A DNA stretch of 64,000 bases. Origin: Paraflavitalea soli (lineage in GTDB: Bacteria; Bacteroidota; Bacteroidia; Chitinophagales; Chitinophagaceae). The notes beneath the pieces were generated by a model. That model searched no databases. It was not told the DNA's origin and worked only from the letters and a program-made list of their open reading frames with translations. Below are positions 820 to 60,224 of the stretch, in pieces (position 1 is the stretch's first letter; each line of letters starts with the position of its first letter). The position numbers were made by a program, and so were the translations under genes. The stretch covers positions 1,616,546 to 1,680,545 of the forward strand of contig NZ_CP032157.1 of the NCBI RefSeq assembly GCF_003555545.1, in the 5' to 3' direction.

Positions 820-1269
820 ATGAAACAGATAATCCGCTTTATTGTCAAACACCGGGTATATTTTATTTGGCTTTCATTGGTAGCTGTACTCGCTACTTTG
901 AAAGGGTGTTTCCTGAAAAATGCTTTATTGGATACTGCGCCCGCACCAGCTTCCAAACCATCTCCCCTGGTAGAGGCTGCGCCGGATTCGGCCATCCTGC
1001 TCTTGTCCTTAACCAAAGAAGAAGCCATCTTGTGCCGCGGGATACATAAAGGAAGCCAGGTCATCCTTTGCCGGACAGATTCAACGACGGGAGCAACACC
1101 TGCTGACTGTTACGGCCCCATCCGTGTAGCCGCGGCCCATAGCAATAGCACCGAGACGCCAGGTGATCTTTTATTCCTGCAGGTGCCCATCACAGAAGTG
1201 TGGAAGATCAACGCTTGTTTAGCTGCCACCAAAAGGTCTATTTTGCTGCTTCCACCCAAGAGCCGGTAA
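820..1269 (+). CDS. Hypothetical membrane-anchored protein (149 aa)
   Basis: The N-terminus has basic residues followed by one hydrophobic stretch (about residues 11-27) ending near a Cys (LKGC). This is either an uncleaved anchor or a weak lipobox. The rest is a small, probably periplasmic domain with several Cys and no family I recognise. ATG 820 is preferred over the in-frame TTG at 793, which overlaps the previous stop and would put a polar stretch before the signal. A strong terminator follows at 1301-1337. Confidence 0.55.
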   Translation: MKQIIRFIVKHRVYFIWLSLVAVLATLKGCFLKNALLDTAPAPASKPSPLVEAAPDSAILLLSLTKEEAILCRGIHKGSQVILCRTDSTTGATPADCYGPIRVAAAHSNSTETPGDLLFLQVPITEVWKINACLAATKRSILLLPPKSR

Positions 1270-1300
1270 AAAGGTTATCGCTAGTAACAGCTTTTCATAT

Positions 1301-1337
1301 AAAAAGCCCCCGGGATGTAGTACCAGGGGGCTTTTGT
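1301..1337. terminator. Bidirectional Rho-independent terminator
   Basis: A perfect 10-bp stem, AAAAGCCCCC (1302-1311) with GGGGGCTTTT (1326-1335), has an A-run on one side and a T-run on the other. It sits between two convergent genes ending at 1269 (+) and 1356 (-), so it can serve both. Confidence 0.85.
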
Positions 1338-1355
1338 ATTTGGAGAGGCTATGCT

Positions 1356-3368
1356 TTAGTGGGGCATGTTCAAAGGGCGCCGCCGTAAAACTTCATTCAG
1401 GGCTAATAGTTGATTGGGGAAATTGGGCAACCTTAAGCAGGGTGAATGAAAGACCAGGTTTTCGAGGCTGCTTCCCCTGAAGAAAGCTTCATTGAAACCT
1501 TTTTGTGGCAGGGGACTGGGACCGGGATCGTTGACAAAGAAATCGCCAATGGGATCGTTATCATCATCCGCTGCACTGGGGTTGTCATCTGCGCCCATGC
1601 CGGTCATAAAACCGGATAGGCCGGCTGCAGATCCGATATTCCTGGGTCTTATGTGGGTGAATAGGTTCCGTGTCTCTCCTTTGTGACAACCACTACAAGT
1701 GCCAAAAGAAAATTCCCGGCGTTTGAAGGGATCAATGGGATTAGCAGCATTACCCCGCCAATGATAGCTGTTGGGTGGTGTATTGTCGGGAGCACTTACT
1801 ACTATGGGGGCATGAATGCCTTTAACCGGGTCGGGTATGGTATAATTGGGATTGAGGTTGGCAGGAGTAAAAGGCACGGTATTGGCGAAGGCTGCCATAG
1901 CCGCCAGCTTGCCGGCATTAAAACCAACTAAAAAGCCATTGGAGCCTACCATCGGTTCATGACTGGGATGGATGATGTTTAGTTTATGGGTGGTGCCATC
2001 GATCTCAAAGTCGCGGATATCCCAGGGATGGGTGGGGGTAAAGGTGGCCGGCAGGAAATCATTGGTGCGAAAATGGTTCAATGCACTTCTGTTGGCTTTG
2101 GAAGGATCGGCATTGATGGCTGTAAAGACATCGGTAATGGCCTGCAGCTTTGTATTGAAGTTGGGGCCAAATGCTTCGGATTGCAGGTCCCACCATTGTT
2201 GTCCGTATGCTTTTAATGCTTCGCAGTTTTTGATGGGGATGCCATATTCCATGATAAAGGTCATGGTGCCGAGGTCGTTGTTGCTACTGCCACAGTCGGT
2301 GCGGCTGTCGGAGAACGCAAAGACAAAACGTCCTTCTCCCGGATTCCTGAAGCCGCCATACCCGGAGTTGCCCCGCAGATCGAGCCGGTTGACGATCGCC
2401 AGCAAGCGTACCGGGAATTCTTCGGCTTTCAAAGCCATGGTTTGCCATCCTGCCGGTACGCCGGTGCCTGCGGGATTGGGCAGGCCGCTGTTCTTTATCC
2501 AGGCCCTGATGAGTCTTGCTTTCGAGATGGACCGGTTGGTACTGGCATCTGTACTGGAAAGGGTATGGGCACTGAACAGGAAATTATCCACCCAGTCGAT
2601 CAGGAATTGTTCGACGGTAACGGTGGTTACGGGCTGATTGGCCATGTTGGCCACCAGGGTCTTAAAGCTCCATACGCCATTGGGGTTGCCTTTATTACCT
2701 GTGCGGCAGGGATCATAGGTCCTGGTGAGGTCTTCCACCACGGATACATCTCTTATCATAAGACTTTTATCGCGGATGGCGGGCATGGAGGCTTTGGTGA
2801 CCATGGTGAAAAAGAACACTTTGATGGGTAGCTTCAAATGCAGGCGGAAGGAATCGAGGGTGATGGGCTCAAACTCGCGTTTTACTTCGCGCACACGGCC
2901 GGCAAAGCTGGTAATGAGGTTATTTTGTTTGGCCAGTACTTCCTTGTTGTTGTTGATGACGGTAGCCAGTTCTTCATCACTCACTTTGAGTGGTACGCTG
3001 AATTGACCATCGTTGGCTATTTCATCTCCATTAATACCCTGGTCGGTTAATTTGAATTGTGTCTTTTCATCGATGTTGAGGGGTAAGGTATTGATGCCCC
3101 GCAGGCGGGTCTCTTCTTTGGCAAATGATGCGATCAGGAGGACTGTATTGCCGTCCTTATCGGGCTTTTCCAGTTTTTTGATGAAGATATCCTGCACAAC
3201 AGGCGGTGATTGGCTAAAAGCCTGCATTAAGGTGTCACTGGGCAGTACCTCGGTGACCTGGTTAACGGGCGGTTTAGGACCTCCGCACCCTTCGCATCCA
3301 TACAATACAAAACACAGGAATAAAATTACCCAAAGGGATACCCCTTGCAGTGAAAGAATCTTTTTCAT
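1356..3368 (-). CDS. Secreted lipoprotein with one CxxCH haem-type motif (670 aa)
   Basis: A type II signal peptide with lipobox LYGC near residue 25 is followed by a Cys/Gly/Pro-rich linker, so the product is likely an outer-membrane lipoprotein. A domain near residues 45-140 containing DQGINGDEIANDG resembles the surface beta domains found in anchored Bacteroidota proteins. Around residue 555 the sequence CSGCHKGETRN gives a single CxxCH, the covalent haem c attachment motif, which suggests a cytochrome-like or redox role. No distal Met ligand can be assigned by eye. The gene is monocistronic, flanked by a terminator at its 3' end and a divergent glycosyltransferase. Function is not known. 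Confidence 0.7.
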   Translation of the reverse strand: MKKILSLQGVSLWVILFLCFVLYGCEGCGGPKPPVNQVTEVLPSDTLMQAFSQSPPVVQDIFIKKLEKPDKDGNTVLLIASFAKEETRLRGINTLPLNIDEKTQFKLTDQGINGDEIANDGQFSVPLKVSDEELATVINNNKEVLAKQNNLITSFAGRVREVKREFEPITLDSFRLHLKLPIKVFFFTMVTKASMPAIRDKSLMIRDVSVVEDLTRTYDPCRTGNKGNPNGVWSFKTLVANMANQPVTTVTVEQFLIDWVDNFLFSAHTLSSTDASTNRSISKARLIRAWIKNSGLPNPAGTGVPAGWQTMALKAEEFPVRLLAIVNRLDLRGNSGYGGFRNPGEGRFVFAFSDSRTDCGSSNNDLGTMTFIMEYGIPIKNCEALKAYGQQWWDLQSEAFGPNFNTKLQAITDVFTAINADPSKANRSALNHFRTNDFLPATFTPTHPWDIRDFEIDGTTHKLNIIHPSHEPMVGSNGFLVGFNAGKLAAMAAFANTVPFTPANLNPNYTIPDPVKGIHAPIVVSAPDNTPPNSYHWRGNAANPIDPFKRREFSFGTCSGCHKGETRNLFTHIRPRNIGSAAGLSGFMTGMGADDNPSAADDDNDPIGDFFVNDPGPSPLPQKGFNEAFFRGSSLENLVFHSPCLRLPNFPNQLLALNEVLRRRPLNMPH

Positions 3369-3644
3369 GCTTAGTTGTTTTAAATGAATGATGTGCGCCC
3401 TGTTTTTAAGGGAGGATCATGTTTAGCGCGGCAAAAAGGAAAAGCATACCATGAATAAGGGGGGATAAATATTCATCAATCCTGGCAGGGGAGAGCATGA
3501 TAAATATGCGTACTGTGAAGATAAATGATCAGAACGGGCCTGACAATACCACTTATAGGGTAATTTTTCAAGGACGTGGATGGCGTACGGCATCTAGCCA
3601 CCCCTGTTATTCCGTATGTAAGGTAATTACCCAATATCTCAACG

Positions 3645-4736
3645 ATGACCTTCCACAGGATATCCTTCTGTACGGTATGCATGAACAGGACGCTCCACCT
3701 GAAGGAGACGCTGGTCCGGAACATCCTGGATAACAGCGCTTATCCCAACCTGGAATATGTGCTGTTGAACTACGGCTCGAAAGATGATATGCATGCATGG
3801 GTAACGGGCGAAATGAGCCAATACCTGGAATCGGGCCTGCTTAAATACTATAAAGCCGACTTTCCGGAAGTCTTCAGGATGAGCCATTCCAAGAATATGG
3901 TCTTTAAGCTGGCGACCGGCGATATTTTGTGTAGCGTGGATGCAGACAATTTTACGGGTCCCGGATTTGCGGCCTATATCAATAAGCTGTTTGCCAGGGA
4001 TAAAAACATGTTCCTGGCGCCACCCTGGGTAGGGCCAGACAAGAAATGGTGGGATGTGCAGGGGAGGCTATGCCTGTGGAAAAAAGACTTCTACCGTTTT
4101 CGTGGTTATGATGAGGGGATCGTGGATTATGGGTATGATGACCAGGACTTCAAATACCGCATGATCGATGGTGGCCGCCGCAAGTCGATTGTGCGGACCA
4201 GCCGGTTTCTCCGGGCCATCGAACATACGGACGAACTGAGGATAGCGGGCGGTATGACCTCCAAAATGTTGCTTACAATACTGCTGGCTCCCAAAACGGA
4301 CAGGGAATGGGAGATGCTCTACCTGCGTACAGACAACCGGTTTGAGCGGTTCCGGGTGATGGCCCGTGGTATCGGCTTCGATAAAGCACAGCAGCCCAGT
4401 GGTGATGTAGGCGGAAAGCTGGTGTTGAAACTGTCGGACTATGCCACCGGAAACTATAATGCCCATGATGCCGGTATTGCCTGCAGCCAGGACAATGGGG
4501 CCCTGCTGGAACTGCTTTCGAGGCATCATCAACAGGAGTTGGTGGACGGTAATGGCCAGGTGTATTACCGTCTGGAGCCGGGGAGGCTGCAGGATCAATT
4601 GCTAATGGGGCGGGCTTGCTTTATGGGAAAGCTGAAACTGCTGGAGAATAAACAGCATCGTACAGGGATCAACCAACAGGGGTTTGGACAAGGCGCGGTA
4701 ACGGTACATTCATCGGGGAGGCAGCTTGTGTTATAA
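3645..4736 (+). CDS. Family 2 (GT-A fold) glycosyltransferase
   Basis: The product transfers a sugar from a nucleotide-sugar donor; the acceptor is unknown. The N-terminus ISFCTVCMNR is the usual first beta strand of GT2 enzymes. A DxD-type metal/nucleotide motif (VDADN) lies near residue 100, and GYDEGIVDYGYDDQD near 160-175 matches the galactosyltransferase C-terminal acceptor segment (GxDE...xxED-like). There is no signal peptide or membrane segment, so it is cytosolic. The 363-aa length fits a single catalytic domain plus a C-terminal extension of unknown role. The start at 3645 is set by the position of the first strand. The upstream 276 bp holds no convincing gene. Confidence 0.8.
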   Translation: MTFHRISFCTVCMNRTLHLKETLVRNILDNSAYPNLEYVLLNYGSKDDMHAWVTGEMSQYLESGLLKYYKADFPEVFRMSHSKNMVFKLATGDILCSVDADNFTGPGFAAYINKLFARDKNMFLAPPWVGPDKKWWDVQGRLCLWKKDFYRFRGYDEGIVDYGYDDQDFKYRMIDGGRRKSIVRTSRFLRAIEHTDELRIAGGMTSKMLLTILLAPKTDREWEMLYLRTDNRFERFRVMARGIGFDKAQQPSGDVGGKLVLKLSDYATGNYNAHDAGIACSQDNGALLELLSRHHQQELVDGNGQVYYRLEPGRLQDQLLMGRACFMGKLKLLENKQHRTGINQQGFGQGAVTVHSSGRQLVL

Positions 4737-4784
4737 CAGAGACCATCAATCGCATTCATCAATCACCATAAAACTGTAAGCATT

Positions 4785-4889
4785 ATGAACCCCGTTCCGG
4801 AAGGATTGCTTTATACCAGGGAGCACGAATGGGTAAAAGTAGATGGAACTACAGCCACTATATACTTGCGGACGCAAAGCCACTTTTGA
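4785..4889 (+). pseudogene. gcvH: Remnant of glycine cleavage H protein gene
   Basis: The 34-residue reading frame starts with MNPVPEGLLYTREHEWVKVD, which matches the highly conserved start of GcvH (pattern xxPxxLxYTxEHEWxxxxG). It then leaves the family sequence after about 26 residues and stops at 4889. The lipoyl-lysine region is absent. A further 4926-5009 segment is open for 27 codons and looks protein-like (TEANTEKYASQLAKA) but is not recognisably GcvH. The whole 4737-5038 gap therefore appears to be degraded coding sequence, probably a partial duplicate. Confidence 0.6.
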
Positions 4890-5038
4890 TGGCCGGTACT
4901 GCAAGCTGGTTTGTAAATGCGGGGTGTGCTGGGCAAACTAACGGAGGCCAATACCGAAAAATATGCTTCGCAACTGGCGAAGGCGGTTGCTTTGAAGGGT
5001 GAAGAATAGCTTTCAGGTATCAGGCGCTATACAACGGA

Positions 5039-7180
5039 TCAAGGTTTGATCTCAAGTTCAAAAGCAGCATTCAGTGTGAGCTTGCCTTCGACTTCGGTGC
5101 CTGTACCTGCCAGTTTCCAGCCCTTTGCTTTACCGGTTTTACCTTTGGCGAGCAGGTCGGCAATTTGTTTGTCGGTAAGTTTTTTGCCAAAAACTTCAAA
5201 GGGTATTTTGAAGCCGCAGGCTTTGAAATTGGCGCAGCCATAAGCGGTATTGCCTTTCTTCAGCAAATGGGCTTTGCATTTGGGGCATTGCTGCTCTTCG
5301 ATCAGGATTGTCTTTTTGGGTGCTGCGGATTTAGACTCTTTCTTAGGCTTATCGGCTTTCTCTTTTTCCTTTTCTTTGGCGGCCGGTTGATCGGGTACAA
5401 TGGTGATCACTTTGTAATTAGCGGTCTTTACCTCGGTAGTAAGGTCAATGACCATCTGGATCAGTTCCTGCTTGAAGGTCTCCATGGCATACTCGCCTTT
5501 TTCGATGAGGCGTAGTTTGCGTTCCCAGATACCGGTGAGCTCGGGGCTTTTGAGAATTTCGGTCTGGATGGTATCTATGAGGTCGATGCCGGTTTGGGTG
5601 GCAAAAATATTCTTCTTGCGTTTCTCTATATACTTGCGGCGAAAGAGGGTCTCGATGATATTGGCACGGGTGGAGGGACGGCCAATGCCATTGTCTTTGA
5701 GCAGTTCGCGCATTTCCTCATCATCAACCTGTTTGCCCGCTGTTTCCATGGCGCGCAGGAGGGTGGCTTCGGTGAAGGCTTTGGGTGGAGAGGTTTTGCC
5801 CTGGTGAATTCGCGGGGTATGGGGACCGCTTTCTCCTGCTACAAATACGGGCAATATCTTTTCTTCTTCCTCGCCTTCTTTTTTAGCGGTCACATCATTG
5901 ACATATATTTCTTTCCAGCCAGGTTCCAATATTTGTTTACCGGTAACTTTGAACGGTACCTGACCTACTTTACCCAGCACGGTGGTATTGGAAATCTTAC
6001 ACTCCGGGTAGAAGGCGGCAATGAAACGCCTGGCTACGAGGTCGTAGATCCGTTTCTCTTCCGGCCCCAGGCCGGATGGATAGACGCCTGTAGGAATGAT
6101 GGCATGGTGATCGGTCACTTTCTTGTCGTCGAAAACGGTTTTCAATTTAGGGATCGGGTTGGCCAGTACCGGGGCAGTGAGGGCTGCATAAGGCGTAAGG
6201 TCCTGCATGATGGTCGCAATTTTAGGATGCAGGTCTTCGGAAAGGTACGTGGTATCTACCCGGGGATAGGTCACCAGTTTCTTTTCATACAGGTTCTGGA
6301 TATATTTCAGGGTGTCGTCGGCGGAATAGGCATATTTTTTATTGGCTTCCACCTGCAGGCCGGTGAGGTCGAACAGGCGGGGGTTGCCTTCTTTGCCTTC
6401 TTTCTTCTCAAAGGAAGTGATCTCAAAGGGATGTTCCTTCAGGTACGCCAATCCTTTCTCTGCCCTGTCCAATACTTTGATACGGTCGATGGTAGCGGTG
6501 AATTCGGTATCGCGGTAGATGGTCTTTAATTCCCAGTATTCTTCGGCCACGAAGGCATTGATCTCTTTCTGCCGTGCTACGATCATGGCCAGGGTAGGGG
6601 TTTGCACCCTGCCGATGGAGAGCACTGTTTTGCCCTGGGCAAATTTAGTGGTGAACAAGCGGGTGGCATTCATGCCCAACAGCCAATCACCAATAGCGCG
6701 GGCGCTGCCTGCTGCATAGAGGTTGTCGTACTGGTCGGCATTTTTTAGCTTTTGGAAACCTTCGCGGATGGCTTCTTCTGTAAGGGAGGAGATCCATAAC
6801 CTTTTGACGGGGGCGGTGCATTGCGCTTTGAGCAATACCCAACGCTGGATGAGCTCACCTTCCTGGCCTGCATCACCACAGTTGATCACTTCGTCACACT
6901 GCTTTACCAGCTGCTCTATTACTTTGAATTGTTTTTTGACGCCGTCGTTGTTGATGAGTTTGATGCCAAAACTGGGCGGGATCATGGGCAGGGCTTCCAG
7001 TCGCCAGGATTTCCATTGGTCGGTATAATCATGTGGTTCCTTCAGGGTACAGAAGTGCCCAAAGGTCCAGGTTACCTGGTACCCGTTGCCTTCGAGGTAT
7101 CCGTCCTTGCGGTCTTTGGCGCCGATGATCGCCGCTATATCTCTCGCCACACTTGGCTTTTCAGCAATGCAAACCTTCAT
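5039..7180 (-). CDS. topB: DNA topoisomerase III (type IA)
   Basis: The enzyme relaxes negative supercoils and decatenates DNA through a transient 5'-phosphotyrosine. The TOPRIM domain opens with KVCIAEKPSVARDIA and has the acidic NCGDAGQEGELI motif. The strand-passage domain carries SIGRVQTPTL and the catalytic tyrosine near residue 305 (VTYPRVDTTYL). After a Lys/Glu-rich linker (about 600-630) there is a four-Cys zinc ribbon (CPKCKAHLL ... CANFKACGF) and a C-terminal repeat with GKKLTDKQIADLLAKGKTG. At 713 aa it matches the usual chromosomal Bacteroidota form. It is transcribed divergently from the acidic protein gene at 7280. Confidence 0.95.
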   Translation of the reverse strand: MKVCIAEKPSVARDIAAIIGAKDRKDGYLEGNGYQVTWTFGHFCTLKEPHDYTDQWKSWRLEALPMIPPSFGIKLINNDGVKKQFKVIEQLVKQCDEVINCGDAGQEGELIQRWVLLKAQCTAPVKRLWISSLTEEAIREGFQKLKNADQYDNLYAAGSARAIGDWLLGMNATRLFTTKFAQGKTVLSIGRVQTPTLAMIVARQKEINAFVAEEYWELKTIYRDTEFTATIDRIKVLDRAEKGLAYLKEHPFEITSFEKKEGKEGNPRLFDLTGLQVEANKKYAYSADDTLKYIQNLYEKKLVTYPRVDTTYLSEDLHPKIATIMQDLTPYAALTAPVLANPIPKLKTVFDDKKVTDHHAIIPTGVYPSGLGPEEKRIYDLVARRFIAAFYPECKISNTTVLGKVGQVPFKVTGKQILEPGWKEIYVNDVTAKKEGEEEEKILPVFVAGESGPHTPRIHQGKTSPPKAFTEATLLRAMETAGKQVDDEEMRELLKDNGIGRPSTRANIIETLFRRKYIEKRKKNIFATQTGIDLIDTIQTEILKSPELTGIWERKLRLIEKGEYAMETFKQELIQMVIDLTTEVKTANYKVITIVPDQPAAKEKEKEKADKPKKESKSAAPKKTILIEEQQCPKCKAHLLKKGNTAYGCANFKACGFKIPFEVFGKKLTDKQIADLLAKGKTGKAKGWKLAGTGTEVEGKLTLNAAFELEIKP

Positions 7181-7279
7181 AATCTTGAAAAGACCCCAAA
7201 TGTCGGGATTTTATACTGTCTATTTGGTAATTTTAGGGTGGAAGCTCGAATTTCCTACACATAACTAAACAGGCAGACC

Positions 7280-7579
7280 ATGAGTAAGAAGGCTAAAAAC
7301 AAACCTACAGATCCGGAAGAAGACAAGAAATTTCCTTTACCGGAATATAAGCAAGAAGATGATATTTATAACCGGGCAAAAGAAGAACCGCTGGATGATG
7401 AAGGACAACCTGTAAAAGGCAAAGGGGGTAACCGCAACAAACAGTTGGGCGATGATCTTGATGTGCCGGGTGCTGAGCTGGATGATGCAGATGAAGGGGT
7501 AGGTGAAGAAGATGAAGAAAACAATTATTACAGCCTGGGCGGCGATAACCACGATGATCTGGAGGAAGACCGGGATTAG
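7280..7579 (+). CDS. Small acidic hypothetical protein (99 aa)
   Basis: The protein is very rich in Asp, Glu, Lys and Gly, with a basic start (MSKKAKNKP) and an acidic tail. It has no hydrophobic core, so it is probably intrinsically disordered and cytosolic. No family recognised. It lies 8 bp upstream of the hydrolase gene at 7588 and is probably co-transcribed with it. Its start is supported by the 99-bp divergent intergenic region with topB. Confidence 0.65.
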   Translation: MSKKAKNKPTDPEEDKKFPLPEYKQEDDIYNRAKEEPLDDEGQPVKGKGGNRNKQLGDDLDVPGAELDDADEGVGEEDEENNYYSLGGDNHDDLEEDRD

Positions 7580-7587
7580 CACACACT

Positions 7588-8253
7588 ATGCCTACCAAGT
7601 CAATAAAACTCACGGTGTCTGCTGCTATCGGCAAGGTATCTGCCATTGTGATGGCGCCTGCCAGACCAACGGCTATCCTGACGCTCGCGCATGGAGCAGG
7701 CGCTAATATGGATCATCACTTTATGGTCGAATTGGCTACGGCCTTGTCGAAAGCGGGCATTGCGACGCTACGGTTCAATTTCCCGTTTACCGAAAATAAA
7801 AAAGGCCGACCTGATACGCCGGCGGTGGCGCACGAAACGATCGCAGCAGCGATCGATAAGGCGCATGCACTATACCCTTCGCTTCCCTTGTTTGTGGCAG
7901 GCAAATCTTTTGGCGGACGGATGTCGTCGCAATACCAGGCTGCCAACAAACGTAAGGAGGTAAAGGGGCTTATCTTTTATGGGTTTCCGCTGCACCCTGC
8001 GGGTAAACCATCCACTGACCGGGCTGAACACCTGCAAGAAATAAAAGTGCCCATGCTTTTTCTACAGGGCTCGAAAGATGCGCTGGCTACCTGGGACCTG
8101 ATCGAACCGGTATGCAAAGCACTCAAAAAAGCCAAACTGGTTAAACTGGAAGGCGCTGACCACTCTTTCAAGGCCGGTAAAACGGATACGATGGCCTTGC
8201 TGACGGAGGCCACGCAACAATGGGTGTTATCGGTGGTGAAGAAACTTAAGTGA
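7588..8253 (+). CDS. Alpha/beta-hydrolase, dienelactone hydrolase/KANL3-Tex30-like
   Basis: The product is a predicted serine hydrolase of the small alpha/beta fold. The N-terminal strand is followed by LTLAHGAGANMDHHF (oxyanion loop), and the nucleophile elbow is GKSFGG near residue 112. The acid lies in LFLQGSKDALA, and the catalytic His in EGADHSF near the C-terminus. There is no signal peptide, so it is cytosolic; the substrate is unknown. It forms a two-gene operon with the acidic protein gene. Length (221 aa) is typical for the family. Confidence 0.8.
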   Translation: MPTKSIKLTVSAAIGKVSAIVMAPARPTAILTLAHGAGANMDHHFMVELATALSKAGIATLRFNFPFTENKKGRPDTPAVAHETIAAAIDKAHALYPSLPLFVAGKSFGGRMSSQYQAANKRKEVKGLIFYGFPLHPAGKPSTDRAEHLQEIKVPMLFLQGSKDALATWDLIEPVCKALKKAKLVKLEGADHSFKAGKTDTMALLTEATQQWVLSVVKKLK

Positions 8254-54991: not shown

Positions 54992-55135
54992 ATGAAATCT
55001 ACGCACCAATTGCCAGCCCTGTTGGCCTACCCAGATCTCATCCTTTTTGTAAATCGCTCGTTATCCAGCATTGATGCTTCTAGTTCTAATTATCAGAGCA
55101 GCCATTCTATTATTAAAGTAATTCATAACGATTGA
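54992..55135 (+). CDS. Possible small ORF directly upstream of the ATPase gene (47 aa)
   Basis: An ATG-led frame beginning MKSTHQLPALLAYPDLILFV ends at 55135, one base before the ATG of the ATPase gene. That spacing suggests translational coupling or a leader peptide. It matches no family and has no clear ribosome-binding site, so it may be chance. Confidence 0.3.
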   Translation: MKSTHQLPALLAYPDLILFVNRSLSSIDASSSNYQSSHSIIKVIHND

Positions 55136-55136
55136 C

Positions 55137-58007
55137 ATGAAACTATTTCAGATCTTAGAAAGCTACGACACAGCCTCGCTAGACCAAATCTCTGCGGATA
55201 AGATTGATGAGGCGATCAGTTTACGGTTACCCCAACAAGTAATCCTACAGGAGGTTATATCGGCCTTAAGTTCACAGTCGTATATCTCAGGCAGGATTTT
55301 ATATGGCAAGCCCCCCACTTTTGCCATGCTAAACCTGATCCTGCAAGCGCCTGACTATGCTGTAGGCATAGACGATTTTAGGACCCGTGTACTAGATTAT
55401 ATCAAAGAACTGTCCACCCGTGCAGGCCAGAGCAAGGTGACCGCAGAAAAGAATCCGATACTCTATACCAAGATCCTCAAGAAAGCATGGGAAAACGATG
55501 GGTTGATCGATAAAAACGAATCCCAGATATTGGAACTACTAAAATTTGAGCTGGGTATTTGGGACCGGGAACATTTTACCCTGATGCACGACGAGAGCAT
55601 CATTGGATTGTGGGACCTGGAGCAGGAATACTACCTGGCCAGAAATACCCTGTTGGCTACGGGTATTGTACTGACCTCCGGCAACCGCTATGTAATGGCA
55701 GACGAAGTGGCGGAACAGATCAAAAAAGTATTCGGTATAGAGATCATGGATAGTTCCTATAAAAGATTGCTGGCTGGCCTTAGCCGGGAAGACCTTGCCC
55801 TGATTCTGAACTATTATGCGCTCAATGTCAGTGGTACCAAGGACGCGATGATCGACAGGATCCTTAATAGCCTGATCCCACCTTCTGAAGTTCTGAATCA
55901 ATTGCACCTTGATAGTTTACGGGAACTTTGCCGCCGTTCAGCCATTCAAATCAGTGGAATAAAAAGTACCGTCATTGCCAATATCCTGCAGTTTTTTGAC
56001 CAAAATCTTGATCTTGTAATGGCTCCAGCTGTGCAACAAGCGCCAGTTTTACCTCCTGCTCCCGAACTCCGGGAAATGGATGCAGAGATTTATAGTAAGA
56101 TATTACTTAGCCTGACCGGTCAACAACTCTATGATATCCTCGCCCAAAGTAACCTGATGACCAGTGGTTCTAAAGAAGAAAAGGTAAAGCGTATCGTGGA
56201 TAGTTATCTTTCTGAAAGATCAGCATTGAATCATCTTCGTAAAGACGACATTGCCCAGTTGTGCCGCAAATTTACTTTGCAGAGCTCCGGTTCCAAACAG
56301 GAATTAATTGATCGGCTCCTGGATTATATACCCCCTGTGTTGCCCATTCCACGCGAAATAGTGGACTACCAGCCCTTACAGCCTGCGACATCTGCTTCCA
56401 TAGACCCCAAGGAATCGGCATCGCTACCTATTAGCCAGGAATCCGTGCCTGTTCCATCGGGTTTTGATGACGTCAATGCAAAATTCCCGGGGCTTAACCA
56501 GGAGGAGAAAATTATACTTGCGATCCTCAAAGAAGCAAAATCTATTACAGAACAGGACCTGGAAAGAATTGTAGCCAAACACAAACTGAGCTGGTTTTTG
56601 CATAAGGCCCATATGGCTGAATTAATGGCCAAGCTCAAAAGAGAAGGGAAATCATTGATTCAGATCAAAAGCGTACAGAATACCAATATTTATCAATGGA
56701 TAGGTGGCGAGAATGCCGATGATCAGGTGGTGGGAAAAAAGTCTGCGAGGGATATCATCGATGCCCTGCGTCACGGAGTGGTGCCTAAAAATAATCTCAA
56801 CCTGCTGATGGTGGGTCAACAAACTGCCAAAACTCATCTCTCGGAAATATTGCTGGAGGTAAATAGTGCGAAGTCTCATTTTAAATTTATTCGTGGTCAA
56901 TATGGTTCCGGTAAAACCTTTCTCTGTTCCTGGCTCAAGGAATTTGCGATTGACAATGAATTTGCGGTATCCTTCATGAATATCAGTCATGATCAGCCTC
57001 TTTCAGACCTACCCGTCTTTTTCTCTGGCATGATTGCCGGACTACGTACACCGGAAAAATTAGATTCCAGTGCCCTGGTGGATATTTTGGAATCGTGGCT
57101 GCTCAATATCCATAATAAAACCGCCAAAATAGAAGGCATTGTGCCCGCTGGCCCGGATAGTATAAAGGCCCTTACACGGGCCGTAGAAAAGACGATTGAA
57201 GTAGAACTTGCTAACCTGAGTGGTATTGAACCTGGCTTTTCCCAGGCTTTGCGTGCCTTTTATGAAGGAAAGGTCAGCGGCGATCTTGAACTGACTGCTA
57301 ATGCCGTGGCCTGGATCACAGGTAGCAGGTCACTGTCTGCACAGGCCCTGCGGGATATTGGCGTTAAGGGGTACCTGGAGCCCAGTAATGTCTTTGCGAG
57401 AATGCGGGCGATTCTGGAAATAATTAGCGGAGCCCGGTACAAAGGGTTGCTGCTGCTGGTAGATGAACTGGAGCTGGTACGCAAGTTCCCCCATGCCCGT
57501 CAACGAGAACAAGCCCTGGAAACATTACGCTTGCTGATCGACGAAGCTGGTAAAAATGCATTACCGGGTTGCTTACTCATCTTCACGGGAACTGATGAAT
57601 TCTTTGAAGATGAGCGCTATGGCCTTCGGAGTTATGAAGCGCTGGCCGAAAGGGTCATGACGCCCTTTACCCACCAGAGCTTTGTCAGCATGCGTCAACC
57701 CATTATCAGTTTGGAATCACTCGACTCCGAGCGATTAAACAGTGTTGTTCTAAAGATCAGGGACCTATATGGAATTGCCTACAGTTGGGACGCACAGCAA
57801 TTTGCCGACGATGCGTCTATTTCCCAATTGATCCAGGAATGGACCTTGTTTGGGGAGGAAAGTGTAGATCGCAAACCAAGACCCATACTCAGAGAGTTCA
57901 TACAAATGCTCGATCTCTGTGAAGAAAATAAAGGCGTATCGCTGTCCCAGTTCCTAAAAAAGCCAAACCTCGATATAGCATCACCCACTACCTTTCACGC
58001 TAATTAA
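55137..58007 (+). CDS. SAP-repeat P-loop ATPase, BrxD (DUF2791)-like
   Basis: The N-terminal part (about 1-200) is helical and resembles tellurite-resistance/TerB-like helical domains only vaguely. Four SAP-type DNA-binding repeats follow (about 213-246, 255-287, 325-358, 364-396; each with an L-x-x-x-G-x-K-x-E pattern such as TSGSKEEKVKRIVDSYL). A linker and a winged-helix-like segment (about 450-520) lead to the ATPase domain with Walker A GQYGSGKT at 587-594 and Walker B LLLLVDELE with Asp776 and Glu777. The ATPase part fits the BREX ATP-binding protein BrxD. It is followed after 6 bp by the Lhr/BrxHI-like helicase gene, as in type 2 BREX, but no other BREX gene is nearby. Confidence 0.75.
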   Translation: MKLFQILESYDTASLDQISADKIDEAISLRLPQQVILQEVISALSSQSYISGRILYGKPPTFAMLNLILQAPDYAVGIDDFRTRVLDYIKELSTRAGQSKVTAEKNPILYTKILKKAWENDGLIDKNESQILELLKFELGIWDREHFTLMHDESIIGLWDLEQEYYLARNTLLATGIVLTSGNRYVMADEVAEQIKKVFGIEIMDSSYKRLLAGLSREDLALILNYYALNVSGTKDAMIDRILNSLIPPSEVLNQLHLDSLRELCRRSAIQISGIKSTVIANILQFFDQNLDLVMAPAVQQAPVLPPAPELREMDAEIYSKILLSLTGQQLYDILAQSNLMTSGSKEEKVKRIVDSYLSERSALNHLRKDDIAQLCRKFTLQSSGSKQELIDRLLDYIPPVLPIPREIVDYQPLQPATSASIDPKESASLPISQESVPVPSGFDDVNAKFPGLNQEEKIILAILKEAKSITEQDLERIVAKHKLSWFLHKAHMAELMAKLKREGKSLIQIKSVQNTNIYQWIGGENADDQVVGKKSARDIIDALRHGVVPKNNLNLLMVGQQTAKTHLSEILLEVNSAKSHFKFIRGQYGSGKTFLCSWLKEFAIDNEFAVSFMNISHDQPLSDLPVFFSGMIAGLRTPEKLDSSALVDILESWLLNIHNKTAKIEGIVPAGPDSIKALTRAVEKTIEVELANLSGIEPGFSQALRAFYEGKVSGDLELTANAVAWITGSRSLSAQALRDIGVKGYLEPSNVFARMRAILEIISGARYKGLLLLVDELELVRKFPHARQREQALETLRLLIDEAGKNALPGCLLIFTGTDEFFEDERYGLRSYEALAERVMTPFTHQSFVSMRQPIISLESLDSERLNSVVLKIRDLYGIAYSWDAQQFADDASISQLIQEWTLFGEESVDRKPRPILREFIQMLDLCEENKGVSLSQFLKKPNLDIASPTTFHAN

Positions 58008-58013
58008 TGAGTT

Positions 58014-60224
58014 ATGGTTTCCATCAATCAACTGCCTGCCAGACTAAGCAATCATCTCAAAGACAAGGGATGGACAGACATGACCTCGATTCAGAAGGCC
58101 GCCTATCAGCATATTTTCGATGGTACTAGCTGTATCATCGAGGCACCCACTTCCGGTGGCAAAACCGAAGCCGTATTGTTTCCCCTACTGGCGCGTTTTG
58201 CCGGCCCAACTACCCCGGGTGTCCGTATTCTGTACATTGCTCCGCTCAAGGCCCTGTTGAACGACCTTTTTACCAGGGTTAAAAAATATGCTGAATGTTG
58301 TTCCCTGGATGCCTTCAAATGGCATGGAGACGTAAGTCAGGGAGATAAGGTAGAGCAAATGCTCTACCCCGCACAGATTCTGCTAACTACTCCTGAATCC
58401 ATCGAAGCGATATTGCTCCGCAAGGCCAACTGGCAGCAAGTTTTTGCGAACCTAGAAACCATCGTGATCGATGAGGCGCATTATTTTGCACAAACTGAGC
58501 GAGGCGCCCACCTAATGGCCCTACTTGAACGCATCGGAGAAGGCATCGGTAAAGTACCACAACGCGTGGCAGTTACCGCCACCATAGGTAATCCCGAGGA
58601 GTTGGTGCAGTGGCTTACTGGCAACAGGCCGGGCGGCATTCCTATAAAAGTTCCCAACTCAACATCGAAACAGCGTGACTTTCTCATTGAGTTCATTGAC
58701 GAAGAGACCTCTAATCTTCACAGCCGTCTCTATCAATTATTACCCAATAAGAAAAGCATTGTTTTTGAACGTTCACGCAGCGGAACTGAGGACACTGCCA
58801 CTCGTATCAACGAACTCAATCAGCTTACTCAAAGTCGTATACCTGTAAAAGTAAAAACACACCATTCTTCTGTTAGCAAGCGACTGCGGGAGGATGCGGA
58901 AGTATCTATTAAAATGGCTTCTGAATCATCACTCAATGCCATCATCAGCACCTCGACATTGGAATTGGGTATCGATATTGGTGACTTGGACCAGGTGATT
59001 CAGGTTGGGGGGTTACATAGTTCGGGTTCCTTTCTCCAACGTGTGGGACGAACTGGCCGTAGAGATGGAAGACCGCAGTTCTTCCGTGGTTTTTGCATAG
59101 AGGCAGGAGAGCTTGTACTACTGGCCGGCTGCGTTAGCCTGGGCATGGCTCATCAATCTGAAAAGATATTGTTTCCTAAAAGAGCCTTTCATATTCTTGC
59201 GCATCAGATCATTTGTATTTGTCTACAGAAGAAAGGTGCCACGCCCGACCAGATCTGGCCAATCCTTTCCAGAGCCGCCTGCTTTGCTGAAATTACACGC
59301 ACAGAATTTGATACCCTTATCGCTTTTATGGTCAAAGAAGATCTGCTGCGCTACATTCACGGAATGACACTAATGACAGGCGATAAAGCCGAAAAGGAGT
59401 TTTTACGCGCCAGCGGTAAGAGACTGTTTGCTATTTTTGATACCGGTATCATGTATGATGTGGTAGATGGTAAAAAGCTCGTCGGTACCCTGGATGCCGA
59501 TTTTATGAGGATTCAGCAGCTTCCATTTGTATTTGTACTTGGGGGTATAGAATGGAACGCAAAAAAGATTGATCACCAAGCCCAACAAGTATTGGTCAGC
59601 AGGAATGAATCGGGCAGCGCTCCCCAATGGACCAGTATGAGAAGCAAGGATGTGCCTTTTGAACTAGCGCAAGAGATTGGGCGATTATTAGTCGCTGGAA
59701 AGCCACTTGGATTCTTGGATTTCCGGGCAACAGTGATCATGAGAAGGGAAGCTAACCAGCATAGCGGCCTGGGTTGGGATAACCATACCTGGACTCTTGA
59801 CCCCTCGGCGAATGACGGAAAGTTTTATCTATGGACTTTTTGTGGGGATAAGATCAACCGGGCAATCAAATTCTTATTAGATGCTGAACTCGGCATTCGT
59901 GCCAAATATGATTATCAATTGGTCACCATTGATATCGATAAAAAAAAGCCCACCTCTTCTGCAAGGATCATAGACTATTTAGTTTCCCTGGGCAATTCGA
60001 CGGAAAAAGAGCTTGAGCAAATAATCATGCCGAATATGAGGGCTAGCTGGTTCTCGAAATTTTCGATATGCCTGCCTGATGAGCTGGCAAAGATCACCCT
60101 TAGGGAAAAGGGTATTGACCTGGCGGGCCTTTTACGAGAAATTAATAAAATACAGATCCGGCAGCTGAATGACGACTTGCCAGCTGGGTCTTCAGGGACA
60201 TTTGAAGCTGAAGCGGTAGAATAA
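58014..60224 (+). CDS. Lhr-like DEAH helicase, BrxHI-like
   Basis: A superfamily 2 helicase of 736 aa. It has the Q-motif-like TSIQKAAYQHIFDG, Walker A APTSGGKTEA (Lys50), Walker B VIDEAH (153-156), TAT-type motif III TATIG, a second RecA domain with STLELGIDIGDLD, and motif VI QRVGRTGRRDGRPQ. The C-terminal half (about 390-736) is a winged-helix/Lhr-type region cut shorter than full-length Lhr. No nuclease or zinc ribbon is visible. It is paired with the BrxD-like ATPase, likely as one operon, and may translocate on DNA under control of that ATPase. Confidence 0.82.
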   Translation: MVSINQLPARLSNHLKDKGWTDMTSIQKAAYQHIFDGTSCIIEAPTSGGKTEAVLFPLLARFAGPTTPGVRILYIAPLKALLNDLFTRVKKYAECCSLDAFKWHGDVSQGDKVEQMLYPAQILLTTPESIEAILLRKANWQQVFANLETIVIDEAHYFAQTERGAHLMALLERIGEGIGKVPQRVAVTATIGNPEELVQWLTGNRPGGIPIKVPNSTSKQRDFLIEFIDEETSNLHSRLYQLLPNKKSIVFERSRSGTEDTATRINELNQLTQSRIPVKVKTHHSSVSKRLREDAEVSIKMASESSLNAIISTSTLELGIDIGDLDQVIQVGGLHSSGSFLQRVGRTGRRDGRPQFFRGFCIEAGELVLLAGCVSLGMAHQSEKILFPKRAFHILAHQIICICLQKKGATPDQIWPILSRAACFAEITRTEFDTLIAFMVKEDLLRYIHGMTLMTGDKAEKEFLRASGKRLFAIFDTGIMYDVVDGKKLVGTLDADFMRIQQLPFVFVLGGIEWNAKKIDHQAQQVLVSRNESGSAPQWTSMRSKDVPFELAQEIGRLLVAGKPLGFLDFRATVIMRREANQHSGLGWDNHTWTLDPSANDGKFYLWTFCGDKINRAIKFLLDAELGIRAKYDYQLVTIDIDKKKPTSSARIIDYLVSLGNSTEKELEQIIMPNMRASWFSKFSICLPDELAKITLREKGIDLAGLLREINKIQIRQLNDDLPAGSSGTFEAEAVE

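What the first reader, a model, noticed from the sequence alone, without database searches (positions are those of the whole stretch)
54992..60224. Stand-alone BrxD-like/BrxHI-like module with a four-repeat SAP DNA-binding array
Two adjacent genes, 6 bp apart, encode a P-loop ATPase with BrxD-like features (GQYGSGKT; VDELE) and an Lhr-type DEAH helicase. In type 2 BREX these occur as brxD and brxHI together with pglX, pglZ, brxC (pglY) and others; none of those is within the window. The ATPase also has a long N-terminal part with four SAP-like repeats, which would give it its own DNA recognition. A K+ channel gene and a possible 47-aa upstream ORF lie beside it. This could be a minimal defence or DNA-processing system. 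The family link is knowledge plus visual motif reading; the independent function is inference.
Basis: partly seen in the sequence, partly recalled or inferred. Interest (0 to 1): 0.8.

Follow-up and report, generated by a model that had tools for sequence, protein, structure and literature searches.

The report
SAP-fused BrxD-like ATPase–helicase pair
Two neighbouring genes encode an ATPase with its own built-in DNA-binding array and a partner DNA helicase; they form a conserved pair related to the engines of known anti-phage systems (BREX-2, Shango), and are probably a small phage-defence system of their own.

Summary
Genes 55137-58007 (956 aa) and 58014-60224 (736 aa), 6 bp apart, encode a BrxD-family AAA+ ATPase (PF10923, 331 bits) whose N-terminal half carries four SAP repeats, and an Lhr-like BrxHI/SngC-type helicase. 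The 47-aa ORF and the K+ channel are not part of it. The pair is adjacent in nine of nine genomes where both places are visible (window included), with no other shared neighbour family except one SusC-like match. In these nine genomes PF10923 finds only this gene, TerB_C nothing, and PglZ above cut-off only one PorX-sized protein each. The dyad forms its own clade, apart from BREX-2 and Shango, in both trees. Its N-terminal half is not detectably related to the Shango sensor SngA, but a relative of it precedes a candidate FokI-like nuclease in two genomes. Best reading: a two-gene relative of BREX-2/Shango with a DNA-binding sensor fused to the helicase-loading ATPase. Defence is inferred from family, patchiness and defence genes near 5 of 8 other loci; a control scan did not establish an excess. 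'Minimal stand-alone module' is largely supported; Shango is the nearest working precedent.

The parts
55137..58007 (+). BrxD-like AAA+ ATPase with N-terminal SAP-bearing half (956 aa)
   Evidence: PF10923 E 1.1e-98 at residues 534-942; seven full-length homologues 49-73% identical
55137..55769 (+). N-terminal helical module (residues 1-211), fold unassigned; partly shared with 516-aa candidate nuclease proteins in two other genomes
   Evidence: model positions 56-289 and 63-289; blastp residues 37-289, 25-26% identity
55773..55874 (+). SAP repeat 1 (residues 213-246)
55896..56006 (+). SAP repeat 2 (residues 254-290)
56106..56207 (+). SAP repeat 3 (residues 324-357)
56229..56330 (+). SAP repeat 4 (residues 365-398)
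   Evidence: Pfam SAP 1e-12, best stretch 364-398
56487..56699 (+). possible winged-helix segment (residues 451-521) after a variable linker
   Evidence: element order H455-466 H472-481 H485-502 E510-513 E518-521, but pLDDT mostly under 60 there; 47-75% identity to the window against 8-28% for the linker
56736..57962 (+). BrxD/SngB-type AAA+ domain (residues 534-942); Walker A 56895-56918, Walker B VDELE 57459-57473
   Evidence: Walker motifs kept in 9 of 9 rows that cover them
58014..60224 (+). BrxHI/SngC-like Lhr-type DEAH helicase (736 aa): DEAD 24-196, Helicase_C 238-350, WH_Lhr 380-532
   Evidence: helicase motifs kept in 8 of 8 rows, with DETH for DEAH in one and SAT for TAT in another

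Best explanation
A self-contained two-gene system for acting on foreign or abnormal DNA, most likely an anti-phage defence module. The N-terminal module and SAP array of the first protein bind DNA. The attached BrxD-type AAA+ ATPase then loads or switches on the partner Lhr-like helicase at that site, and the helicase disrupts the bound DNA (for example phage replication intermediates). It works like Shango (sensor + SngB + SngC) and like the BrxD-BrxHI dyad of BREX-2, but with the sensor fused to the ATPase and built from SAP repeats instead of TerB domains. SHOWN: domains, intact motifs, strict pairing, own clade in both trees, no PglZ-based BREX and no SngA-like partner found, patchy distribution. 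INFERRED: DNA binding by the array, helicase loading, defence. No nuclease or modification enzyme is conserved with the pair, so self/non-self discrimination by DNA structure rather than by methyl marks is the expected (untested) logic.
For: Pair adjacent in 9 of 9 genomes with both places visible (the helicase is in two ORFs in L024). All-against-all blastp of flanking genes finds no shared neighbour family except the pair and one SusC-like match. FUSED ATPases and helicases are monophyletic (100/99 and 100/100), separate from 22 Shango and 5 BREX rows; ATPase and helicase distances correlate, r = 0.88 over 8 genomes, pairs not independent. Nine of nine genomes have exactly one PF10923 match and one PglZ match above the cut-off, ORF 521-536 aa; the window genome's one is response regulator + PglZ; none has a TerB_C match. 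Purifying selection: dN/dS 0.01-0.07 in the four regions with finite dS, between two Flavihumibacter copies, dS saturated. Patchy: 3 of 244 same-family genomes (window's included) carry it, 0 of 3 other same-genus genomes. Known or candidate defence genes within 8 kb in 5 of 8 other loci: SIR2; PDC-M16A and type IV REase; PDC-S27 and caspase; Cas9; DRT UG5-nitrilase. Shango, with homologous ATPase and helicase, inhibits phages as a three-gene system (PMC10250203, passages). PMC12839542 (passages) proposes that BrxD may load or activate BrxHI and says that BrxD lacks additional DNA-binding domains; here an array of a DNA-binding domain family is fused on.
Against: No experiment. The window locus and L024, L025 and L034 show no recognisable defence neighbours (only two window neighbours were scanned with PADLOC). 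The control does not establish an excess of defence genes: at E <= 1e-15, 31 PADLOC families match among 60 neighbour genes and 38 among 61 control genes, each list cut at 25; by name the neighbour list shows at least seven kinds (DRT, PDC-S27, type IV REase, PDC-M16A, Cas9, PD-T7-4, SoFic) and the control list about three (SNF2-type helicase, SIR2, mad3), but proteins cannot be counted from these tallies. The fold of residues 1-211 is unassigned; the AlphaFold model is weak (best of five 71, the others 55-58) and a second job failed (pLDDT 38). SAP domains can also bind RNA or serve as scaffolds (recalled), and no nuclease accompanies the pair.
Confidence: 0.55

Rival explanations
1. A dispensable DNA-repair or DNA-processing module: the SAP array brings an Lhr-like helicase to damaged or unusual DNA of the host itself.
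For: Lhr proteins are called well-characterised DNA repair helicases (PMC10953399, abstract opening in a listing); PF19306 WH_Lhr match; three of eight other loci and the window have no recognised defence neighbour.
Against: Very patchy (3 of 244 family genomes; absent from 3 of 3 other same-genus genomes). All nine genomes have further helicase matches, among them an ORF of 821-888 aa in 7 of 9, the size of the Lhr-like DEXH helicase model TIGR04121 (804 positions; their identity was not tested). The nearest PADLOC families are in defence systems.
Confidence: 0.2
2. Remnant of a BREX-2 or Shango operon that lost its other genes.
For: Homology of both genes to BrxD/SngB and BrxHI/SngC.
Against: Separate clade, with the same N-terminal half in every copy seen whole; intact motifs and low dN/dS; same two-gene layout in Chitinophagaceae and an Ignavibacteria MAG; 20 of 22 PF10923 regions examined from 395 phylum genomes are Shango, and no ORF in the 22 has a PglZ or BrxC query among its two best hits.
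Confidence: 0.05
3. A defence system that works with an unlinked host partner, such as RecBCD-like nucleases or a solitary methyltransferase, rather than alone (overlaps with the best explanation except for 'self-contained').
For: No nuclease in the pair and no conserved third gene; a relative of the N-module occurs in two other genomes fused to a candidate nuclease, so recognition plus cleavage is a natural combination.
Against: No direct evidence for any partner; Shango acts from a plasmid carrying TerB-like, ATPase and helicase genes with flanking sequence (PMC10250203, passages).
Confidence: 0.3

Closest known systems
Shango (SngABC)
   Same: Homologous ATPase (SngB) and helicase (SngC) in the same order; works without BREX genes; 20 of 20 high-scoring short PF10923 loci in the phylum sample are Shango.
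   Different: No SngA/TerB gene found; sensor fused to the ATPase and made of SAP repeats; profile comparison of the N-terminal half with SngA gives probability 0.1% and 1%; separate clade.
Type 2 BREX, brxD-brxHI dyad
   Same: Same ATPase-helicase dyad; the best PADLOC models are BrxD and BrxHI.
   Different: No BREX PglZ in the nine genomes; PglX and PglW not searched; BrxD is described as lacking additional DNA-binding domains (PMC12839542, passages), whereas this one has four SAP repeats; below the NCBIfam BrxD cut-off.
Lone 516-aa N-module + SAP + candidate FokI-like nuclease proteins (L032, L033)
   Same: Homologous N-module and SAP region (blastp E 2e-9 and 8e-16).
   Different: Ends in a candidate nuclease (PF09254 E 0.0008, 19.4 bits against a cut-off of 25, in one of the two; no match in the other) instead of an ATPase; no helicase partner found beside it.
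Other BrxD/BrxHI-like dyads: L038 (Deinococcus plasmid), L128 (genome G601)
   Same: BrxD-like ATPase next to BrxHI-like helicase, with no PglZ or PglX annotated or matched in the stretch read.
   Different: Neighbours are an LRV/HEAT-repeat protein (L038) or a DNA methylase and a HinP1I-like REase (L128).

Membership tests
BrxD/SngB ATPase family (PF10923, DUF2791) | Match to the family profile over the AAA+ domain | tested here: met
   331 bits, residues 534-942, profile 3-412 of 414
BrxHI/SngC helicase family | Full-length match to BrxHI/SngC models with helicase core and Lhr winged helix | tested here: met
   508 bits BrxHI, residues 4-706 of 736; SngC 392 bits; WH_Lhr
BREX (any type) | PglZ protein in the operon | tested here: not met
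   One PglZ match above the cut-off in each of 9 genomes, ORF 521-536 aa; the window genome's lies millions of bases from the pair and is response regulator + PglZ. One further match, below the cut-off, is also in the window genome. The other eight proteins were not scanned for the response-regulator domain.
BREX (any type) | BrxC ATPase | tested here: inconclusive
   PF10923 finds only the fused gene in 9 of 9 genomes, but no BrxC protein was shown to be caught by this model here
BREX type 2 | PglX methyltransferase and PglW | not tested
   No genome-wide search for PglX or PglW was run; none was recognised among the neighbours scanned
Shango | SngA with TerB domains | tested here: not met
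   No TerB_C in 9 of 9 genomes (its 14 control genomes were silent too, but the Pfam model matches 5 of 5 SngA proteins); hhalign of the N-terminal half with SngA 0.1% and 1%
Shango | SngB and SngC in one operon | tested here: inconclusive
   Homologues present but in a separate, supported clade and scoring lower with SngB/SngC than with BrxD/BrxHI models
Anti-phage defence system | Protects against phage | not testable with these tools
   Needs a phage challenge
SAP domain | Match to SAP profile and helix-extension-helix units | tested here: met
   helix pairs 217-244, 258-288, 328-355, 369-395 in the model

The most novel reading that the evidence does not exclude
The BrxD-BrxHI (SngB-SngC) dyad is a general plug-in engine of prokaryotic immunity, and this is its smallest form: a two-protein system in which a SAP-array DNA sensor is covalently coupled to the helicase loader, needs no methyltransferase or nuclease of its own, and detects invaders by DNA structure. 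A relative of the sensor module is joined to a nuclease in other genomes. The fusion would reveal what BrxD does in BREX-2 and SngA in Shango: bring the loader to target DNA.
Probability: 0.4. Interest if true: 0.75.

Novelty: new variant of a known kind. Interest (0 to 1): 0.55.

Why it matters
The 2026 BREX survey calls the role of BrxD distinct yet uncharacterised and suggests that it loads or activates BrxHI (PMC12839542, outline and passages); the passages read on Shango state no mechanism (PMC10250203). A natural fusion of a DNA-binding-type array to the BrxD-type ATPase points to this ATPase acting at a chosen DNA site, and gives a two-protein system small enough to reconstitute. Print check: ten library searches with SAP-domain, BrxD/BrxHI, DUF2791, Shango or SngABC terms list no title or abstract opening that describes such a pair; three were cut (20 of 77, 12 of 42 and 15 of 142 papers listed). 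Passages were searched in five papers. Supplements, preprint servers and subscription papers were not searched.

Tried and rejected
TerB hypothesis: residues 110-140 look TerB-like by eye, so I suspected a fused SngA. Two profile comparisons, Pfam and Foldseek (no match at E <= 0.001, 50 of 252 weaker ones shown) did not support it; dropped.

47-aa upstream ORF: not conserved. K+ channel as partner: backbone gene. Island boundary: synteny with G214 breaks after the channel, but none of the genes of 80 aa or more to the right of the pair, up to 15 kb beyond the window, matches the compared 32 kb of G214 either, so the size of the differing segment is unknown; GC is unremarkable.

Viral contigs, plasmids and phages, each with the first 533 residues: no relative. 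The plasmid search with the whole ATPase matched 689 records, all under 60% identity and none covering 80% of the query.

AlphaFold of residues 1-213 alone failed. The PDB profile search for the candidate nuclease half gave nothing significant.

Neighbour control: I gave only 61 of the 109 control genes. It matched more PADLOC families (38) than the 60 neighbours did (31), so no excess is claimed; a SIR2-like control protein probably lies in L069, in a genome that carries the pair. After re-reading this I lowered the best explanation from 0.60 to 0.55.

Rows dropped: L030 (209 residues at a contig end) from pair counts and trees; L024 from the trees and from helicase alignment A4, because its helicase is in two ORFs; L113, L116, L123, L125 and L127 from the 38-row tree (15 of the 20 new Shango loci were added); L053 was fetched, has no annotation, and was not used. 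L012 and L013/L028, two contig ends of one genome, are counted as one locus.

Full report
WHAT IS THERE. Two + strand genes, 55137-58007 (956 aa) and 58014-60224 (736 aa), lie 6 bp apart. Protein 1: residues 1-211 are a predicted helical module without a family match; four SAP repeats lie at about 213-398; then a variable linker, a conserved segment that may be a winged helix (about 451-521; low model confidence), and a BrxD-family AAA+ domain (534-942; PF10923, E 1.1e-98). Protein 2: DEAH helicase with Lhr-type winged helix, full-length like BrxHI (508 bits) and SngC (392 bits). Walker A/B are kept in 9 of 9 homologues that cover them, and helicase motifs in 8 of 8, with DETH for DEAH in one and SAT for TAT in another.

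THE SAP ARRAY IS REAL. Pfam reports SAP in the window protein and in both homologues tested. Profiles built from single repeats of eight other proteins were run on the window protein: of 12 cross-comparisons 8 score 6.5-24.6 bits, 1 is marginal and 3 fail, while 200 shuffles reach at most 1.1-3.7; repeat 4 finds repeats 1, 2 and 3 at 17.3, 19.3 and 6.5 bits. The G.K motif of each repeat is kept in all nine proteins that cover it. In the AlphaFold model of residues 1-533 the four repeats are helix pairs, and the highest-probability Foldseek matches (0.97-0.99, but E 0.26-0.32 and target TM-score 0.35-0.38) are chains of DEK-nucleosome complexes; the model is weak (best of five at pLDDT 71, the others 55-58). 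Nine PDB sequences match the profile up to E 1, several of them SAP proteins by recall, the best at E 0.004.

THE PAIR IS CONSERVED. The N-terminal half was found in ten genomes with the right start and context, window included. The fused gene is seen whole in eight; in G170 its halves end at two contig ends (L012, L013), and in L030 only 209 residues are seen. Where the next gene can be seen (nine genomes) it is the helicase in 9 of 9; in L024 (Chitinophaga oryziterrae) the helicase is in two overlapping ORFs. All-against-all blastp of flanking genes shows no other shared family, one SusC-like match aside. In each of these nine genomes PF10923 finds only this gene. PglZ finds one protein of 521-536 aa above the cut-off in each; in the window's genome it is response regulator + PglZ, i.e. 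PorX-like (the name is recalled), and there is one more match below the cut-off. TerB_C finds none (its control genomes were silent too, but the model matches 5 of 5 SngA proteins). PglX and PglW were not searched genome-wide.

A THIRD LINEAGE OF A KNOWN ENGINE. In trees of 38 ATPase and 37 helicase rows, the fused dyads (8), Shango dyads (22) and BREX dyads (5) each fall on one side of a branch in both genes (FUSED 100/99 and 100/100, SHANGO 100/100 and 98/96, BREX 89/95 and 94/90); a 21-row pair of trees agrees. The trees are unrooted and hold long branches, so which group is nearest to the fused lineage is not resolved: the ATPase tree draws it with Shango (89/78), the helicase tree with BREX (95/91). 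In 395 genomes of the phylum sample 23 have a PF10923 match over the cut-off. The 20 loci with ORFs of 430-466 aa and over 470 bits (19 genomes) are all Shango, with SngA on one side of the ATPase and SngC on the other; two genomes have the fused form (the window's and G385); one (L128) is an odd dyad with a DNA methylase and a HinP1I-like REase; one (G398, 26 bits) shows no dyad. No ORF in the 22 regions read had a PglZ or BrxC query among its two best hits.

THE N-TERMINAL HALF IS A MODULE. Two other genomes have a 516-aa protein related to the N-module and SAP region (blastp E 8e-16 and 2e-9; Pfam SAP in both), ending in about 200 residues with an invariant D...D.K pattern. One of the two matches the FokI cleavage domain (E 0.0008, under the cut-off), the other does not, and a PDB profile search found nothing significant: a candidate nuclease, not a shown one. 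Neither protein has a relative of the helicase in its fetched stretch. In that family it occurs in 2 of 92 genomes. So a related presumed recognition module is coupled to a helicase-loading ATPase in one setting and to a candidate nuclease in the other. It is not detectably related to SngA (hhalign probability 0.1% with 5 rows, 1% with 19 rows).

DEFENCE CONTEXT. In 5 of 8 other loci with flanks, known or candidate defence genes lie within 8 kb: SIR2 (L011), PDC-M16A helicase, HipA-like kinase and type IV REase (L012/L013), PDC-S27 ATPase and caspase (L026), Cas9 (L029), DRT UG5-nitrilase directly downstream (L031). L025 has a relaxase upstream. In L024, L034 and the window I recognised none; only two window neighbours were scanned with PADLOC. 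A tally over 60 neighbour genes (31 families) and 61 control genes from carrier genomes (38 families) does not establish an excess: the neighbour list names at least seven kinds and the control list about three, but both are cut at 25 and do not count proteins. The fused form is rare and patchy: 3 of 244 same-family genomes including the window's (three others there have Shango), 2 of 395 in the phylum sample including the window's, 0 of 3 other same-genus genomes. Selection is purifying (dN/dS 0.01-0.07 in the four regions with finite dS, two Flavihumibacter copies, dS saturated).

MECHANISM. Shown: parts, pairing, conservation, separate lineage. Inferred: the N-terminal half binds DNA; the AAA+ ATPase, of the ORC/Cdc6 class according to PMC12839542 (passages), loads or activates the helicase there; the helicase disrupts the DNA. 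The same paper proposes BrxD as a possible loader of BrxHI and says it lacks additional DNA-binding domains; here such a piece is fused on. Shango, with homologous ATPase and helicase, protected P. aeruginosa PAO1 from several phages when its three genes were supplied (PMC10250203, passages), which makes a two-gene form with a fused sensor plausible. Which DNA is recognised is unknown.

VERDICT. Real, conserved, and a new variant of a known kind: it works like Shango or a BREX-2 sub-engine, and is a member of neither by the features tested.

Noticed in passing
L128 (G601:C62) 1150-8107: Two tandem BrxD-like ATPases and a short BrxHI-like helicase next to an N6/N4 DNA methylase (PF01555) and an R.HinP1I-like endonuclease (PF11463): possibly a restriction-modification-linked dyad system.
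   Followed up: partly
L038 (Deinococcus psychrotolerans plasmid NZ_CP034187.1) 2023-9437: BrxD-like ATPase and BrxHI-like helicase preceded by an LRV/HEAT-repeat protein and an unmatched 451-aa protein; a further, separate use of the dyad.
   Followed up: partly
L032 7455-9005 and L033 2008-3558: Lone 516-aa proteins: N-module + SAP region + candidate FokI-like nuclease domain, 65% identical to each other.
   Followed up: partly
L024 10878-13026: Helicase gene of the Chitinophaga oryziterrae pair is in two overlapping ORFs (frameshift or assembly error), while its ATPase is intact.
   Followed up: no
L122 2-7435: Shango locus with several SngA-like proteins in a row (three long ones and one cut at the stretch's end) before SngB and SngC.
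   Followed up: no
L035 6015-9727: Sulfitobacter plasmid Shango operon followed directly by genes annotated as a PD-(D/E)XK nuclease family protein and a UvrD-type helicase.
   Followed up: no
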